Position numbers and translations under genes: made by a program. From Flavobacteriia bacterium (GTDB lineage Bacteria > Bacteroidota > Bacteroidia > Flavobacteriales_D > Crocinitomicaceae): a stretch of 45,434 nt of DNA. The stretch is taken from positions 1 to 45,434 of the forward strand of contig CANHRS010000014.1 in the NCBI GenBank assembly GCA_947463445.1. Reading direction: 5' to 3'. The notes beneath the pieces were generated by a model. The model had not been told where the DNA came from, did not search any database, and saw nothing but the letters and a program-made list of their open reading frames with translations. Positions 21,700 to 40,780 of this stretch are shown here, in pieces (the stretch's first letter is position 1; each line of letters begins with the position of its first letter).

Positions 21700-22620
21700 A
21701 TGGCAGATTTAAAGAATCAAACAGCGTTAGGTGACGTAGCTGCAAGGCAGTTAGCGATTGCTACGAGAACGGTTCCTCAAATGGCAAGCATCACTCCAAG
21801 ATGGTTGACGCATTTAATGAACTGGATCCCTGTTGAATCAGGTGTTTACCGTTTAAACAAGGTAAAAGAAGGGTCAACTGCTCAAGTAGATTGTTCTTCT
21901 AGAGACGAAAAAGTATTACCACATACCTTCGTTGATTACATTGAAAATCCACGTGAGTATAACTTAAGTGCTGTAAACACGTTGGTAGATGTGCACACAC
22001 GTGTATCTGATTTGTATAGTAAACCATATAACCAAATCAGCGAGCAATTACGTTTAGCGATTGAAACAATCAAAGAACGTCAAGAAAGTGAATTGATCAA
22101 CAACAAAGAGTACGGTTTATTAAACAGTGTTTCTCCATCCCAAGTGATTAAAACTAGAACAGGTGCTCCAACACCAGATGATTTAGATGAGTTATTGACG
22201 AAAGTGTGGAAAGAACCAGGATTTTTCTTGTTACACCCATTAGCATTAGCTGCATTTGGAAGAGAGTGTACTAGAAGAGGTGTTCCACCACCGACAGTAT
22301 CTTTATTTGGATCTCAATTTATTACTTGGAGAGGTATTCCATTAATTCCATGTGATAAATTACCTATTGAAAACGGAAAATCAAAAATCATTTTGATGCG
22401 TACAGGAGAAAGCAGACAAGGGGTTGTAGGTTTATACCAACCAAACTTGCCAGGTGAACAAACTCCAGGTTTATCTGTACGTTTCATGGGGATTAACGAT
22501 AAAGCAATTGCGTCTTACTTAGTTTCCTTGTATTGTTCTGTTGCTGTATTAGTAGATGATGCTATCGCAGTATTAGAGGATGTGGATATTACAAACTACC
22601 ACGAGTATAATTACAAATAG
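21700..22620 (+). CDS. Family 2A (SrpI-type) encapsulin shell protein
   Basis: A 306-residue HK97-fold shell protein of family 2 encapsulins. Recognisable features are the extended N-arm (ALGDVAARQLAIATRTVPQM), the WIPVESGVYRLN and HTFVDYIENPREY segments, the long spine helix (QISEQLRLAIETIKERQESEL), and the C-terminal A-domain part GLYQPNLPGEQTPGLSVRFMG. There is no cyclic-nucleotide-binding insertion, which places it in family 2A rather than 2B. These self-assemble into icosahedral cages around cysteine desulfurase, and published work on related systems shows elemental sulfur storage. The next gene is a cysteine desulfurase with the expected cargo extension. Confidence 0.92.
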   Translation: MADLKNQTALGDVAARQLAIATRTVPQMASITPRWLTHLMNWIPVESGVYRLNKVKEGSTAQVDCSSRDEKVLPHTFVDYIENPREYNLSAVNTLVDVHTRVSDLYSKPYNQISEQLRLAIETIKERQESELINNKEYGLLNSVSPSQVIKTRTGAPTPDDLDELLTKVWKEPGFFLLHPLALAAFGRECTRRGVPPPTVSLFGSQFITWRGIPLIPCDKLPIENGKSKIILMRTGESRQGVVGLYQPNLPGEQTPGLSVRFMGINDKAIASYLVSLYCSVAVLVDDAIAVLEDVDITNYHEYNYK

Positions 22621-22689
22621 ACTTCTTTCTCATTAGGGAATTTTTAAAAAATGCTTTTTCTTCGTTCAACTTCAAAATTAAACTCCTCA

Positions 22690-22703
22690 TTTACTCGAGT
22701 AAA
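22690..22703. repeat. Perfect 14-bp palindrome between shell and cargo genes
   Basis: TTTACTCGAGTAAA in the 151-bp gap between the encapsulin stop and the cargo start. As RNA it forms only a short hairpin; it could be an operator or a processing site. No terminator or TAnnTTTG box was found in the gap. Confidence 0.5.
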
Positions 22704-22771
22704 CTGCGGATTTAATTTTTTGTTTGCCTCAAAAAATCTATTTTTTAGAACTCCCCATAAATTTAAAATGT

Positions 22772-24772
22772 ATGGAATTAGATAATTTACAAGCAAATCA
22801 GTTTCCGAGTGAAATGGACATTCAAGCATTGGCAAATCAATTGTTCAAAGCTGCTCCAAATCAATCGGTAAACACACAGTCATTTGCCAATGATCGTGAT
22901 TACCATGCTAATGTAGATAAAGTGAAAACGAACCTTACGGACGATAATCTATTATCTTCTTCAGTTGCTCCGGCATCTGTAGCGGGAAGTGGTAATTCTC
23001 CATCGTTGACAGACCATCAAAATGATTTTTCGATAGATGATCCGCAAACGAGTTTACCAGATCCTCATTTTTACAATGGGCAGATTCCAGAATCTGTTGC
23101 AGGTAGTGGGAAACAACCAACGATCAATGAATCAAATTCAAATTTCTCGTTAGATAACCCACAAACAAGTTTGCCTGACGCTAATTTCTATAATGGACAA
23201 ATTCCTGTATCTGCTGCAGGAAGTGGTAAGCAAGGTAGCTATGATCCACAAAATCCATTTGGAAATACATCTGCTATTCAACCGTTAAACTCTTTTGGGG
23301 TTCCTTCGCACGATGGGATTGGTATTGACCGTACGTATGAAAGTGAACTTTCTGCCGTATTGAATGCACTTCCAACTTCGGTTCCCTCTAGTCAGTTTAG
23401 TTCGATTGGTGGTGCTAACAGTTCTTCCCCGTTGTATTATTTCTTATCGGAAGTAGCAAACAATGCTGGGATATTCGGTAATCCATCTTTGGATCAAGGA
23501 ACTAAAAATACACATGGTTTATCCAGTATTTTTAAACCGCCGTTTGATTTGAATGTGGTGCGTGCTGATTTTCCGATTTTGAAAGAACAGGTGAATGGAA
23601 AACAGTTAATCTGGTTAGATAATGCTGCGACAACCCAAAAGCCTAATCAAGTGATAGATCGTATTAGCTACTTCTATCACCATGAGAATTCTAACATTCA
23701 TAGAGCTGCACACGAATTAGCTGCGCGTTCTACAGATGCATATGAAGGTGCAAGGGTGAAAGTACAACACTTTTTAAATGCAAAATCGGTAAACGAAATT
23801 GTATTTGTGCGTGGTACTACGGAAGCTATCAATTTGGTAGCACAAAGTTGGGGAGAGCAACATTTGCAAGCGGGAGATGAGATCGTTATTTCTCATTTAG
23901 AACACCATGCAAACATTGTTCCTTGGCAACATTTGGCGCAGAAAAAAGGATTAGTTATTCGTGTGATTCCAGTGGATGAAGATGGACAATTAATTATCGA
24001 AGAGTATACGAAGTTGTTGGGTCCAAAAACGAAATTAGTATCCTTTACACAAGTTTCGAATGCTTTGGGTACGGTGACTCTAGCCAAACAAATCATTGAA
24101 CTTGCACATGCTGCAGGAGCGAAGGTATTGTTAGATGGTGCACAGTCTGTATCCCATATTCGTGCGGATGTTCAGGATTTGAATGCCGATTGGTTCGTGT
24201 TTTCAGGACACAAAATATTTGCACCAACAGGAATCGGTGTGTTATATGGGAAAGAAGATTTATTAAATGCCACACAACCTTGGCAGGGTGGAGGAAATAT
24301 GATTAACGATGTGACTTTTGAGAAAACAACGTATCATCCAGCACCAACAAAATTTGAAGCAGGTACCGGAAATATTGCGGACGCAGTAGGACTAGGTGCA
24401 GCGTTGGATTATGTGTCGAAGTTAGGTATTCATAATATTTACCAGTACGAACACGCCTTGTTGAGTTATGCTACTTCTTTGTTGAAAGATGTTCCAGGTT
24501 TACGATTAATTGGTACAGCAGCTAACAAAACAAGTGTTATGTCATTTGTGTTAGATGGGTATACGAATGATGAGGTAGGTCAGGCCTTAAACAAACAAGG
24601 AATCGCAGTACGAACAGGTCACCACTGTGCACAACCAATCTTACGTAGGTTTGGGTTGGAAAGTACAGTTCGACCATCGTTGGCTTTTTACAATACCTGT
24701 GGCGAAATCGATACATTAGTATCTACATTGCATGATTTGAAAAAAGGAAAAAATTATTACTTTCAGTATTAA
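22772..24772 (+). CDS. Encapsulated SufS-type cysteine desulfurase (cargo)
   Basis: A 666-residue protein from ATG 22772; a longer frame from TTG 22724 is less likely. Residues 1-255 form a Gly/Ser/Pro/Asn/Gln-rich, probably disordered cargo-loading region; AGSG recurs at 71, 110 and 149 and PQTSLPD at 91 and 130, i.e. a 39-residue repeat. Residues 260-666 are a group II PLP cysteine desulfurase: WLDNAATTQKP, the HLEHHANIVPWQ stretch, PLP lysine in FSGHKIFAPTGIGVLYG, and catalytic Cys in VRTGHHCAQP. The enzyme removes sulfur from cysteine as persulfide with release of alanine. The gene follows the shell gene directly. Confidence 0.93.
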   Translation: MELDNLQANQFPSEMDIQALANQLFKAAPNQSVNTQSFANDRDYHANVDKVKTNLTDDNLLSSSVAPASVAGSGNSPSLTDHQNDFSIDDPQTSLPDPHFYNGQIPESVAGSGKQPTINESNSNFSLDNPQTSLPDANFYNGQIPVSAAGSGKQGSYDPQNPFGNTSAIQPLNSFGVPSHDGIGIDRTYESELSAVLNALPTSVPSSQFSSIGGANSSSPLYYFLSEVANNAGIFGNPSLDQGTKNTHGLSSIFKPPFDLNVVRADFPILKEQVNGKQLIWLDNAATTQKPNQVIDRISYFYHHENSNIHRAAHELAARSTDAYEGARVKVQHFLNAKSVNEIVFVRGTTEAINLVAQSWGEQHLQAGDEIVISHLEHHANIVPWQHLAQKKGLVIRVIPVDEDGQLIIEEYTKLLGPKTKLVSFTQVSNALGTVTLAKQIIELAHAAGAKVLLDGAQSVSHIRADVQDLNADWFVFSGHKIFAPTGIGVLYGKEDLLNATQPWQGGGNMINDVTFEKTTYHPAPTKFEAGTGNIADAVGLGAALDYVSKLGIHNIYQYEHALLSYATSLLKDVPGLRLIGTAANKTSVMSFVLDGYTNDEVGQALNKQGIAVRTGHHCAQPILRRFGLESTVRPSLAFYNTCGEIDTLVSTLHDLKKGKNYYFQY

Positions 24773-29020: not shown

Positions 29021-30133
29021 TTAATTTTTCCGAATCTGTACTTGATTTAGGTAGGTTTTTACGAGTTTTTTTGCGGCTACAATTGGTGCAATATTATGTT
29101 GTTTTGCATAGAAGAAAGTTTCCAAAGTATTCATGTATATTTTCTCGATTTTTGCTTGTAGATGCTCTTTGTCCGCCTGTACGTATTCAAAATAATTGGT
29201 AATTAAACTCCCTGCATTTATTAAGAAGTCCGGTGTGAAAAGGATTCCATGTTCTTCCAATAATTTACCATCTTCTTCTTCGTTGTTTAATTGGTTTTCT
29301 GCTGGACCAGCGATTAGTTTGTAGCGTAATGAAGGAATGTTAAATTCGTTGATTACCCCACTGGTAGCAGCCGGAATAAGGATGTCTGCATCGAATGTAA
29401 TAACATCTTCTGGAGCAATAGCGTTTAATTGCGGAAAGCGAACTAATAAGGCATCCACTTTTTCTTGATCTTTATCTGCAATGAAAATTTCTGCACCGTC
29501 TTTGAGTAAGAATTCAATAATTTGTGTACCTACATTTCCAACTCCTTGAACGACGATTGAACGACGTTTTAATTCTTCTGTTCCCCAAAGGTAAAATGCA
29601 GATGCTTTTAATCCTTCTAAAACACCATACGCGGTAAAGGTAGCAAGGTTCAATGTTTTGCGTTGGAAACTAATCGTATGTGCTGTTGTTTCTTTGATGT
29701 AATTAAAATCAGTGGTAGTAATAGTAGCGCTTGGAGTAGCGATAAATTTTCCTTTTAATATGTTGATGTAAACTCCAAATTTACGTAATTGATCCGGTGT
29801 AACTATTTCGTTTTCATTTGCAAGTAAAATTGCATGAGCACCACCAATACTTAATCCAGCCATTGCAGCTTTATAGGTTGCAGTTCTGGAGTATTTAACG
29901 ACAGCTTCGAAGGCTTTGTTTATGTGATCGTATTTTTGGATATTGACAGTTCCAAAAGCTGCGCCTAAGGTAGTGTCGTGGATAGCAATTACTGCTCTCA
30001 AACCAGTTTGTTTGTCTTTGATGTATAAAATGTTTTCGTGTTCTAAGACATTTTGTTGTACATCTTCCGGTTTCGTAATCGTGTTTTTATATGCTTTTTC
30101 GATTAGGAAATCGATGTTTTTTAAAGTTCTCAT
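29021..30133 (-). CDS. Leu/Glu-dehydrogenase homologue lacking catalytic Lys and Asp
   Basis: A 370-residue protein of the Glu/Leu/Phe/Val dehydrogenase family. The fold is clear: TYKAAMAGLSIGG (86-98), NAD-binding VVQGVGNVG with GxGxxG, PAATSGVINEFNIPSL, and IAGPAENQL. Lys88 (substrate carboxylate contact) is kept, but the catalytic Lys of GGGK is His100 (GGAH), the catalytic Asp of TAEDVG is Ser135 (ATPSAT), and the substrate-loop GGxRM is FGTVN. It is therefore unlikely to be an ordinary oxidative deaminase; it may be a divergent dehydrogenase, a binding protein or a sensor. A SAM-I riboswitch in its leader ties it to methionine metabolism. Confidence 0.85.
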   Translation of the reverse strand: MRTLKNIDFLIEKAYKNTITKPEDVQQNVLEHENILYIKDKQTGLRAVIAIHDTTLGAAFGTVNIQKYDHINKAFEAVVKYSRTATYKAAMAGLSIGGAHAILLANENEIVTPDQLRKFGVYINILKGKFIATPSATITTTDFNYIKETTAHTISFQRKTLNLATFTAYGVLEGLKASAFYLWGTEELKRRSIVVQGVGNVGTQIIEFLLKDGAEIFIADKDQEKVDALLVRFPQLNAIAPEDVITFDADILIPAATSGVINEFNIPSLRYKLIAGPAENQLNNEEEDGKLLEEHGILFTPDFLINAGSLITNYFEYVQADKEHLQAKIEKIYMNTLETFFYAKQHNIAPIVAAKKLVKTYLNQVQIRKN

Positions 30134-30238
30134 TTTTTTGTTGTTATAAGTTATACGTTTCTTTTGTTTTCGCTAGGGCGATTTTTCATTTTTCGTAACA
30201 ACAACAGCACATTCGTTTTTTCATCTTTTTTCATTTTA

Positions 30239-30356
30239 ATTTATATTCCCACTATTGGGTTAGGATTTGGCACCGATTTTCCAATTTGTATAGTCAAACT
30301 TATAGTTGGTTGCCAGAGGATCGCAAAGCCTAATCTTTCCCCTCTTCTTTATAAAT
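30239..30356 (-). promoter_or_regulatory. SAM-I (S-box) riboswitch aptamer
   Basis: On the minus strand the complete four-helix aptamer can be drawn. P1 pairs AUUUAUA (30356-30350) with UAUAAAU (30245-30239). P2 has AGAG/CUCU, a k-turn-like GGGGAAAGA, and the AAAG/CUUU stem. P3 is GGCAACC with GGUGCC, and P4 is CCCA-AUAG-UGGG. The P2 loop UUAGG is complementary to CCUAA after P3, the SAM-I pseudoknot. Hallmark strings GGCAACC and GGUGCCAAAUCC are exact. The 105 bases to the start codon show no clear U-run terminator, so the expression platform is not obvious. Confidence 0.88.
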
Positions 30357-30387
30357 CAATCTAGTATTGCTAGAAGTAATTGTGATA

Positions 30388-39310: not shown

Positions 39311-40780
39311 ATGTCTAAAAATAATCTTTTTCCTGTCTTCTTGAAATTAGAACAATTACATGTCTTGGTTGTTGGTGGGGGAGTTGTAGCCTTAGAAAAG
39401 TTAACGGCACTCTGGAAAAGTAGTCCGAATACAAAAGTAACGCTAGTCGCTCCTTTAATCAATCCGGAAATTTTGGGCTTTCAAGAAACAAAAGAGTTAA
39501 CAATCCTAGAACGTACTTTTGAAGAAGAAGACTTAGTTGGAAAAGAGGTAGTCATTGTTGCGGTTGGAGATATTCCTACAAGTGAAGTAATTAGAACTGC
39601 TGCAAAAAAACAGAATTTATTGGTAAATGTTGCGGATAAACCAGATTTATGCGATTTTTACTTAGGTTCTATTGTAACGAAAGGAAGTCTTAAAATTGCA
39701 ATTTCTACAAATGGTAAATCCCCGACATTTGCAAAGCGTTTAAAGGAAGTGTTAAATGAAAATATTTCGGAGAATGTAGAGGAATCCTTGGATAATTTGC
39801 AAAAATTGAGAACCCATCTGAAAGGGGATTTTCAATACAAAGTCGATAAATTAAATGAAGTTACCGCTTCTTTAGTGCAAAACAAACAAAAGAAATGGTA
39901 TGATGTTGATTTACGTAAAATTGTACTTTATACATTAGGTGTATTGGGAATCTTAGTTTCGGGACATATTTTATTTACTTTATTACCACCTCAAACGATT
40001 TGGAATTCTACTTACACAGCAATAAATGAGTTAGATGTCGACTTTCTGTATTTCATGTTAGGAGGATTCATTGCGCAAATGATTGACGGAGCACTTGGGA
40101 TGGCATATGGAGTAAGTGCCACAACCTTTCTATTGTCTTTCGGCGTGAGTCCTGCAGTGGCAAGTATGAGTGTGCATGCATCTGAAATTTTTACAAGTGG
40201 AGTTTCAGGTTTGATGCATTTGAAATTTGGAAATGTAAATAGTAAATTGTTTAAAGTCATAGTTTTACCTGGAGTAATCGGCTCTATTTTAGGGGCATAT
40301 ATCTTGACTGAATTTGAAAGTTATAATGCGTATATCAAACCTTTTGTAGGTACGTATACACTTATTTTAGGGATAATTATCATTGTGAAAGTGGTTCGTA
40401 AACATCAAAAAAGAAAAAAAATAAAGCATGTAGGTTGGTTAGCAACGGCAGGTGGATTTTTAGATGCTATTGGTGGTGGTGGTTGGGGACCAGTAGTATC
40501 ATCAACTTTAATTGCGAGTGGAAAATCACCTAGATTAGTGATTGGTTCGGTCAATTTAGCAGAATTCTTTGTTTCCCTTGCAAGTTCATTTACATTTTTC
40601 ACACTTATCGGTGGTTCCGGCTGGCAAACTATTTTAGGTTTAATTTTAGGTGGCGTTTGTGCAGCTCCAATTGCAGCACATTTATCTAAAAAGTTGAACG
40701 TGAAAGCAATGATGATTTTTGTTGGAATTGTTGTTATTATAGTGAGTTTACGTATTATTTATATGTCTATCTTTAAATGA
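39311..40780 (+). CDS. Precorrin-2 dehydrogenase/ferrochelatase fused to TSUP sulfur transporter
   Basis: A 489-residue fusion. Residues 1-200 match the CysG N-terminal (Met8p-like) part: VLVVGGGVVALEKL (NAD site), VNVADKPDLCDFYLGSIV, LKIAISTNGKSPTFAKRLKE. It oxidises precorrin-2 and inserts iron to give siroheme. Residues about 207-489 form eight or nine membrane helices of the TauE/SafE (TSUP) family: MLGGFIAQMIDGALGMAYG, LDAIGGGGWGPVVSSTL. TSUP proteins move sulfite, sulfonates or sulfate. The fusion couples cofactor synthesis with sulfur-anion transport. Confidence 0.92.
   Translation: MSKNNLFPVFLKLEQLHVLVVGGGVVALEKLTALWKSSPNTKVTLVAPLINPEILGFQETKELTILERTFEEEDLVGKEVVIVAVGDIPTSEVIRTAAKKQNLLVNVADKPDLCDFYLGSIVTKGSLKIAISTNGKSPTFAKRLKEVLNENISENVEESLDNLQKLRTHLKGDFQYKVDKLNEVTASLVQNKQKKWYDVDLRKIVLYTLGVLGILVSGHILFTLLPPQTIWNSTYTAINELDVDFLYFMLGGFIAQMIDGALGMAYGVSATTFLLSFGVSPAVASMSVHASEIFTSGVSGLMHLKFGNVNSKLFKVIVLPGVIGSILGAYILTEFESYNAYIKPFVGTYTLILGIIIIVKVVRKHQKRKKIKHVGWLATAGGFLDAIGGGGWGPVVSSTLIASGKSPRLVIGSVNLAEFFVSLASSFTFFTLIGGSGWQTILGLILGGVCAAPIAAHLSKKLNVKAMMIFVGIVVIIVSLRIIYMSIFK

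What the first reader, a model, noticed from the sequence alone, without database searches (positions are those of the whole stretch)
29021..30133. Leu/Glu dehydrogenase fold with both catalytic residues replaced
The GGGK lysine is His100 and the catalytic aspartate position is Ser135, while Lys88, the NAD-binding GxGxxG and the C-terminal signature are kept. The substrate loop GGxRM is also changed to FGTVN. A maintained full-length gene with rewired active site suggests a new reaction or a sensing role, and the SAM riboswitch indicates a link to methionine.
Basis: partly seen in the sequence, partly recalled or inferred. Interest (0 to 1): 0.7.

Follow-up and report, generated by a model that had tools for sequence, protein, structure and literature searches.

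The report
Riboswitch-controlled leucine dehydrogenase with replaced catalysts
A small group of Bacteroidota carries a methionine-regulated relative of leucine dehydrogenase that keeps the fold and the sites for NAD and for the substrate's acid group, but has lost both residues that do the enzyme's chemistry; selection holds it that way, so it probably does a different job, not yet tested.

Summary
The gene at 29021-30133 (-) is a full-length LeuDH-fold protein (best model match Z 45.7, 2.1 A, to a solved LeuDH). Lys80 is His100, Asp115 is Ser135, and GGTRM reads GTVNI; Lys68, Asn262, GxGxxG and the NAD Asp are kept. A SAM (S-box) riboswitch precedes it. Five further genomes of the same genus carry the gene, all with the same His and Ser and a riboswitch. 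dN/dS is 0.05-0.16, and the His and Ser codons differ only synonymously at dS above 1.3, so this is neither error nor decay. Carriers have no ordinary LeuDH. One correction matters: a relative in another genus (46% identity, sister in the tree, 100/99) has standard residues and the same riboswitch. The methionine control therefore predates the rewiring and does not explain it. The host's S-box regulon includes metX and metH, and it has mtnA, mtnC and an mtnD candidate, so 2-oxo-4-methylthiobutyrate should be made. Best reading: an NAD enzyme that gave up ammonia chemistry, probably acting on a methionine-related 2-oxo or 2-hydroxy acid with His100 as acid/base. The rival is a catalytically dead sensor or partner protein. 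No assay exists, so the function is inferred.

The parts
29021..30133 (-). LeuDH-fold protein, 370 aa, stop codon included
   Evidence: AlphaFold2 model mean pLDDT 85.9; best PDB match 8gxd LeuDH Z 45.7, rmsd 2.1 A over 347 residues
29939..29956 (-). codons 60-65, FGTVNI in place of LGGTRM
29870..29872 (-). Lys88 codon, equals LeuDH Lys68 (carboxylate anchor), kept
   Evidence: role from PMC6033044
29834..29836 (-). His100 codon, replaces LeuDH Lys80 (general base)
   Evidence: CAT/CAC across relatives
29729..29731 (-). Ser135 codon, replaces LeuDH Asp115
   Evidence: AGC/AGT across relatives
29297..29299 (-). Glu279 codon, replaces LeuDH Asn261; Asp in G029 and G033
30238..30357 (-). SAM (S-box) riboswitch aptamer RF00162, 57.4 bits, ends 104 nt before the ATG
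30140..30206 (-). predicted hairpin UGUUGUU...AACAACA just before the ATG, candidate expression platform
   Evidence: z -2.3 in the window but +0.4, +0.5 and -0.7 in three relatives, so weak; arms conserved

Best explanation
Shown: a riboswitch-controlled paralogue of leucine dehydrogenase, descended from an enzyme with intact catalytic residues, whose ammonia-handling residues (Lys80, Asp115, and also Glu114) were replaced once and then kept replaced by selection, while the fold, the NAD dinucleotide site and two carboxylate contacts (Lys68, Asn262) stayed. Inferred: it no longer interconverts amino acids and 2-oxo acids. It most likely works as an NAD-dependent oxidoreductase on a methionine-related acid without ammonia, with Lys88 and Asn280 holding the carboxylate and His100, perhaps helped by Asp/Glu279, acting as acid/base for direct hydride transfer between a 2-oxo and a 2-hydroxy acid. 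A candidate pair is 2-oxo-4-methylthiobutyrate and 2-hydroxy-4-methylthiobutyrate. By the usual OFF logic of S-boxes it would be made when SAM is low, which fits recovery of methionine from the hydroxy acid.
For: Residue map. Roles of K68, K80, D115 in LeuDH and of N262 in PheDH from PMC6033044 and PMC8766677; K80-mutant LeuDH has about 1.5% activity (PMC12018205). Fold intact. Purifying selection dN/dS 0.045-0.16. His100 and Ser135 kept through synonymous codon change at dS above 1.3. Cleft not drifting: 34 of 42 cleft positions invariant in the variants against 207 of 294 elsewhere, not a significant difference. Methionine regulon: S-box on metH and metX. Salvage genes in the same genome: mtnA and mtnC above NCBIfam cut-off, plus a protein above the Pfam ARD cut-off next to them.
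Against: No substrate, product or binding data. The hydroxy-acid reaction rests on analogy with His-based hydroxy-acid dehydrogenases (my own knowledge), not on a match to one. LeuDH Asn261, which is involved in recognising NADH, is replaced, and Gly290 is Ser, so NAD binding in the catalytic pose is not assured. Distances between His100, Ser135 and Glu279 could not be measured. One clade of six genomes only.
Confidence: 0.38

Rival explanations
1. A catalytically dead pseudo-dehydrogenase. It binds NAD and/or a methionine-related acid and acts as a sensor, regulator or partner protein under methionine limitation.
For: Both catalytic residues gone, with GGTRM, Asn261 and Gly290 also changed; fold kept; N-terminal 45 residues almost invariant, 44 of 45 against 230 of 325 elsewhere, p 1.5e-5, and different from those of ordinary LeuDH, which would fit a binding surface. 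GDHs are known to moonlight by binding partners (RocG-GltC, own knowledge).
Against: The replaced residues are themselves held constant, including a catalytically capable His and an invariant Lys88. The N-terminal conservation is also present at synonymous sites (dS 0.35 against about 2), so it may reflect the mRNA or recombination. No partner gene travels with it: flanks differ between genomes.
Confidence: 0.32
2. Still an amino acid dehydrogenase, of low activity or with another residue supplying the base, for example a methionine dehydrogenase aminating 2-oxo-4-methylthiobutyrate.
For: Its S-box-controlled sister in G018 has all catalytic residues, so the ancestral role was probably aminating or deaminating an amino acid within the methionine regulon. 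A K80-mutant LeuDH keeps about 1.5% activity and ammonia rescues it to 20% (PMC12018205).
Against: Asp115 is listed as essential to the catalytic mechanism (PMC8766677) and Lys80 as essential to the mechanism (PMC6033044); both are absent, as is Glu114, which affects ammonia activation. The clearest new conserved acid in the cleft is at 279, at the NADH side.
Confidence: 0.12
3. A decaying gene or an assembly artefact.
For: MAG contigs; the gene evolves faster than its metabolic neighbours (81-84% identity to G029 and G033 against 95-97% for MetY and sulfite reductase with G033).
Against: Intact in five of six genomes (the sixth is cut by a contig end), dN/dS 0.05-0.16, same substitutions in every one, two of the same records held in GenBank as L035 and L036.
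Confidence: 0.04

Closest known systems
Leucine dehydrogenase (EC 1.4.1.9), e.g. 6acf, 1leh, 8gxd
   Same: Fold (Z 43-46), length, Lys68, Asn262, GxGxxG, NAD Asp203, Glu297
   Different: Lys80 -> His, Asp115 -> Ser, Glu114 -> Pro, Asn261 -> Glu/Asp, GGTRM -> GTVNI, Leu40 -> Phe, Gly290 -> Ser; S-box control
Tryptophan dehydrogenase ScyB (NCBIfam NF035922, 5b37)
   Same: Best family model by score, 265 bits over residues 30-364
   Different: Far below the curated cut-off of 600 bits; catalytic Lys and Asp of 5b37 not kept
S-box LeuDH of G018 (L118:969-2060 -), found here
   Same: 46% identity, sister in the tree (100/99), homologous S-box leader (83% to the window's, higher than to metX S-boxes)
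   Different: All catalytic residues standard; its genome also holds fragments of an ordinary LeuDH
Engineered amine dehydrogenases (K68S/N261L LeuDH)
   Same: Change at Asn261; amino acid activity lost or altered
   Different: They drop Lys68 and keep Lys80 and Asp115, the opposite of this protein (PMC6033044)

Membership tests
Leucine/phenylalanine/valine dehydrogenase (amino acid dehydrogenase) | ELFV two-domain fold | tested here: met
   Pfam above cut-off; PDB matches
Leucine/phenylalanine/valine dehydrogenase (amino acid dehydrogenase) | Catalytic Lys80 of GGGK | tested here: not met
   His100 in all six variants
Leucine/phenylalanine/valine dehydrogenase (amino acid dehydrogenase) | Catalytic Asp115 | tested here: not met
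   Ser135 in all six variants
Leucine/phenylalanine/valine dehydrogenase (amino acid dehydrogenase) | Carboxylate-binding Lys68 and Asn262 | tested here: met
   Lys88, Asn280
Leucine/phenylalanine/valine dehydrogenase (amino acid dehydrogenase) | NAD-linked oxidative deamination | not testable with these tools
   Needs purified protein
Tryptophan dehydrogenase ScyB | NCBIfam NF035922 curated cut-off of 600 bits | tested here: not met
   265.2 bits
SAM-I riboswitch (S-box) | RF00162 at or above gathering score | tested here: met
   57.4 against 44.4 bits; six of six variants and G018
SAM-I riboswitch (S-box) | SAM-dependent switching | not testable with these tools
   Needs in-line probing or a reporter

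The most novel reading that the evidence does not exclude
An amino acid dehydrogenase converted by nature into a 2-hydroxy-acid (2-hydroxy-4-methylthiobutyrate) dehydrogenase under SAM riboswitch control, using a His100-Asp/Glu279 pair in place of the Lys-Asp pair, so that cells short of SAM can recover methionine from its hydroxy analogue.
Probability: 0.12. Interest if true: 0.75.

Novelty: new variant of a known kind. Interest (0 to 1): 0.48.

Why it matters
It gives a natural experiment on enzyme repurposing. A riboswitch-controlled LeuDH with full catalytic machinery and its sister without it are both in hand, with the switch unchanged. Assaying the two side by side would show whether losing Lys80 and Asp115 made a new reaction or a sensor. 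LeuDH under a SAM riboswitch was not found in the papers searched either (0 papers of the held library have both terms), which points to an unrecognised step in methionine salvage or regulation in Bacteroidota.

Tried and rejected
Missing homoserine dehydrogenase replaced by this protein: rejected, since hom follows metX in G029. Wide family: the profile search found no further member among 399 order, 395 class and 395 phylum genomes sampled, and the genome-contig scan gave only two records already known and a distant partial hit. Ordinary LeuDHs under S-boxes: none of the 29 ordinary LeuDH loci scanned with Rfam had one within the fetched flanks. Viral contigs: no variant; 17 loci with canonical LeuDH homologues, some redundant, were found there and a set of them gave the structure alignment. 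Structure coordinates are not exposed, so active-site distances were not measured. G028:C109 carries the TonB receptor-AspK-SiR stretch at 94-98% identity but its contig ends just before this gene; perhaps a stray contig, not followed. Papers on pseudoenzyme GDHs and on D-to-S mutants gave nothing direct.

Full report
What is there. The ORF at 29021-30133 on the minus strand encodes 370 residues. It matches both ELFV dehydrogenase domains. Its nearest solved relatives are tryptophan and leucine dehydrogenases at about 31-35% identity. An AlphaFold2 model from 13 aligned sequences (mean pLDDT 85.9, pTM 0.85) superposes on LeuDH 8gxd with Z 45.7 and rmsd 2.1 A over 347 residues, so the fold is intact. 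The first 27 residues are low-confidence.

Active site. By alignment to LeuDH 6acf: Lys68 is Lys88 (kept), Lys80 is His100, Glu114 is Pro134, Asp115 is Ser135, Asn261 is Glu279 (Asp in G029 and G033), Asn262 is Asn280 (kept), Thr150 is Thr167 (kept), Gly290 is Ser309, Val294 is Asn313, Leu40 is Phe60, and GGTRM is GTVNI. The dinucleotide motif GVGNVG and Asp220 (LeuDH Asp203) are kept. In LeuDH, D115 holds the amino group, K68 and K80 the carboxylate, and K80 is the general base (PMC6033044); a Lys80 mutant keeps about 1.5% of activity (PMC12018205); N262 of PheDH contacts the carboxylate (PMC8766677 table). The parts lost are thus those that handle ammonia and the iminium, and the parts kept are carboxylate and NAD contacts. 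Among columns conserved in 51 ordinary LeuDHs, 25 of 39 cleft columns changed, 53 of 97 in the substrate domain and 17 of 55 in the NAD domain.

Relatives. The own genome (G000) has this gene and no ordinary LeuDH. Five other genomes of the genus carry it, at 81-96% identity, again without an ordinary LeuDH; other genus members have an ordinary LeuDH at 31-34% identity, and two have neither. All six copies have the same altered motifs and an S-box upstream. dN/dS between copies is 0.045-0.16. His100 is CAT in one branch and CAC in the other, Ser135 AGC and AGT, while whole-gene dS between branches is 1.4-1.8: the residues are held by selection.

The sister with standard residues. G018, in another genus of the family, has a copy at 46% identity with TYK, GGGK and SADV and an S-box of 61.9 bits. 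With the cleft columns removed from the alignment, G018 and the six variants form one clade at 100/99, and the variants alone 100/100, nested among LeuDHs with standard residues. The S-box leaders of the two are more alike (83%) than either is to the metX S-box of its own genome (79% and 80%). So an S-box LeuDH with intact catalysis most likely came first and the catalytic residues were replaced later, on a long branch. G018 also holds fragments of an ordinary LeuDH, so there the S-box gene is a paralogue. This is a single sequence from a 76% complete MAG, and rests on one contig of 5.7 kb.

Physiology. The other S-boxes of the genome precede metH and metX, with hom after metX in G029 and metY under an S-box in G028. 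The window holds metY, an aspartokinase and a sulfate assimilation cluster. The genome carries adjacent genes for mtnA and mtnC, both above NCBIfam cut-offs, and an ARD-family protein, the mtnD candidate, so 2-oxo-4-methylthiobutyrate is expected to be made. The gene stands alone: a divergent TonB receptor upstream, or an NhaC-like transporter upstream in G029 and G032, and no constant downstream partner.

Function. Losing both catalytic residues makes normal amino acid dehydrogenase activity unlikely. I favour, at 0.38, an NAD enzyme acting without ammonia on a methionine-related acid with His100 as acid/base, because the altered residues are themselves constrained and the carboxylate and NAD contacts stay. 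A sensor or partner protein is nearly as likely (0.32). Sequence alone cannot separate them; the assays are listed.

Limits. The clade is small (six genomes, about three lineages), most from MAGs. No coordinates were available, so the His100-Glu279 pairing is a guess from residue roles. Search samples were about 400 genomes per rank, so further members may exist.

Noticed in passing
29999-30133 (codons 1-45): The first 45 codons are conserved at synonymous sites too (dS 0.35 against about 2 further on; identical between G029 and G033), which suggests mRNA-level constraint tied to the leader, or a recombination tract.
   Followed up: partly
21700-24772: Family 2A encapsulin shell gene (NF041162, 533 bits against a cut-off of 380) followed by a cysteine desulfurase with a long repetitive N-terminal extension, as expected for encapsulin cargo.
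   Followed up: partly
L116:2366-3643 (-) and L117:4211-5524 (+): In two relatives the gene just upstream of the S-box, in the same direction, is an NhaC-like Na+/H+ antiporter family transporter in place of the window's TonB receptor.
   Followed up: no
39311-40780: Siroheme synthase N-terminal domains fused to a TauE/SafE sulfite exporter domain.
   Followed up: no
L111 (G028:C25): SAM riboswitch upstream of metY in a genus member; no S-box was found upstream of the window's own metY.
   Followed up: no
L036 (CALPMT020000033.1): Record titled Chitinophaga pinensis MAG carries the gene at 95% identity and matches G024 of this genus in contig length and position, so the title is probably wrong.
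   Followed up: no
L065 (G781): An ordinary LeuDH with GGAK in place of GGGK, otherwise standard.
   Followed up: no
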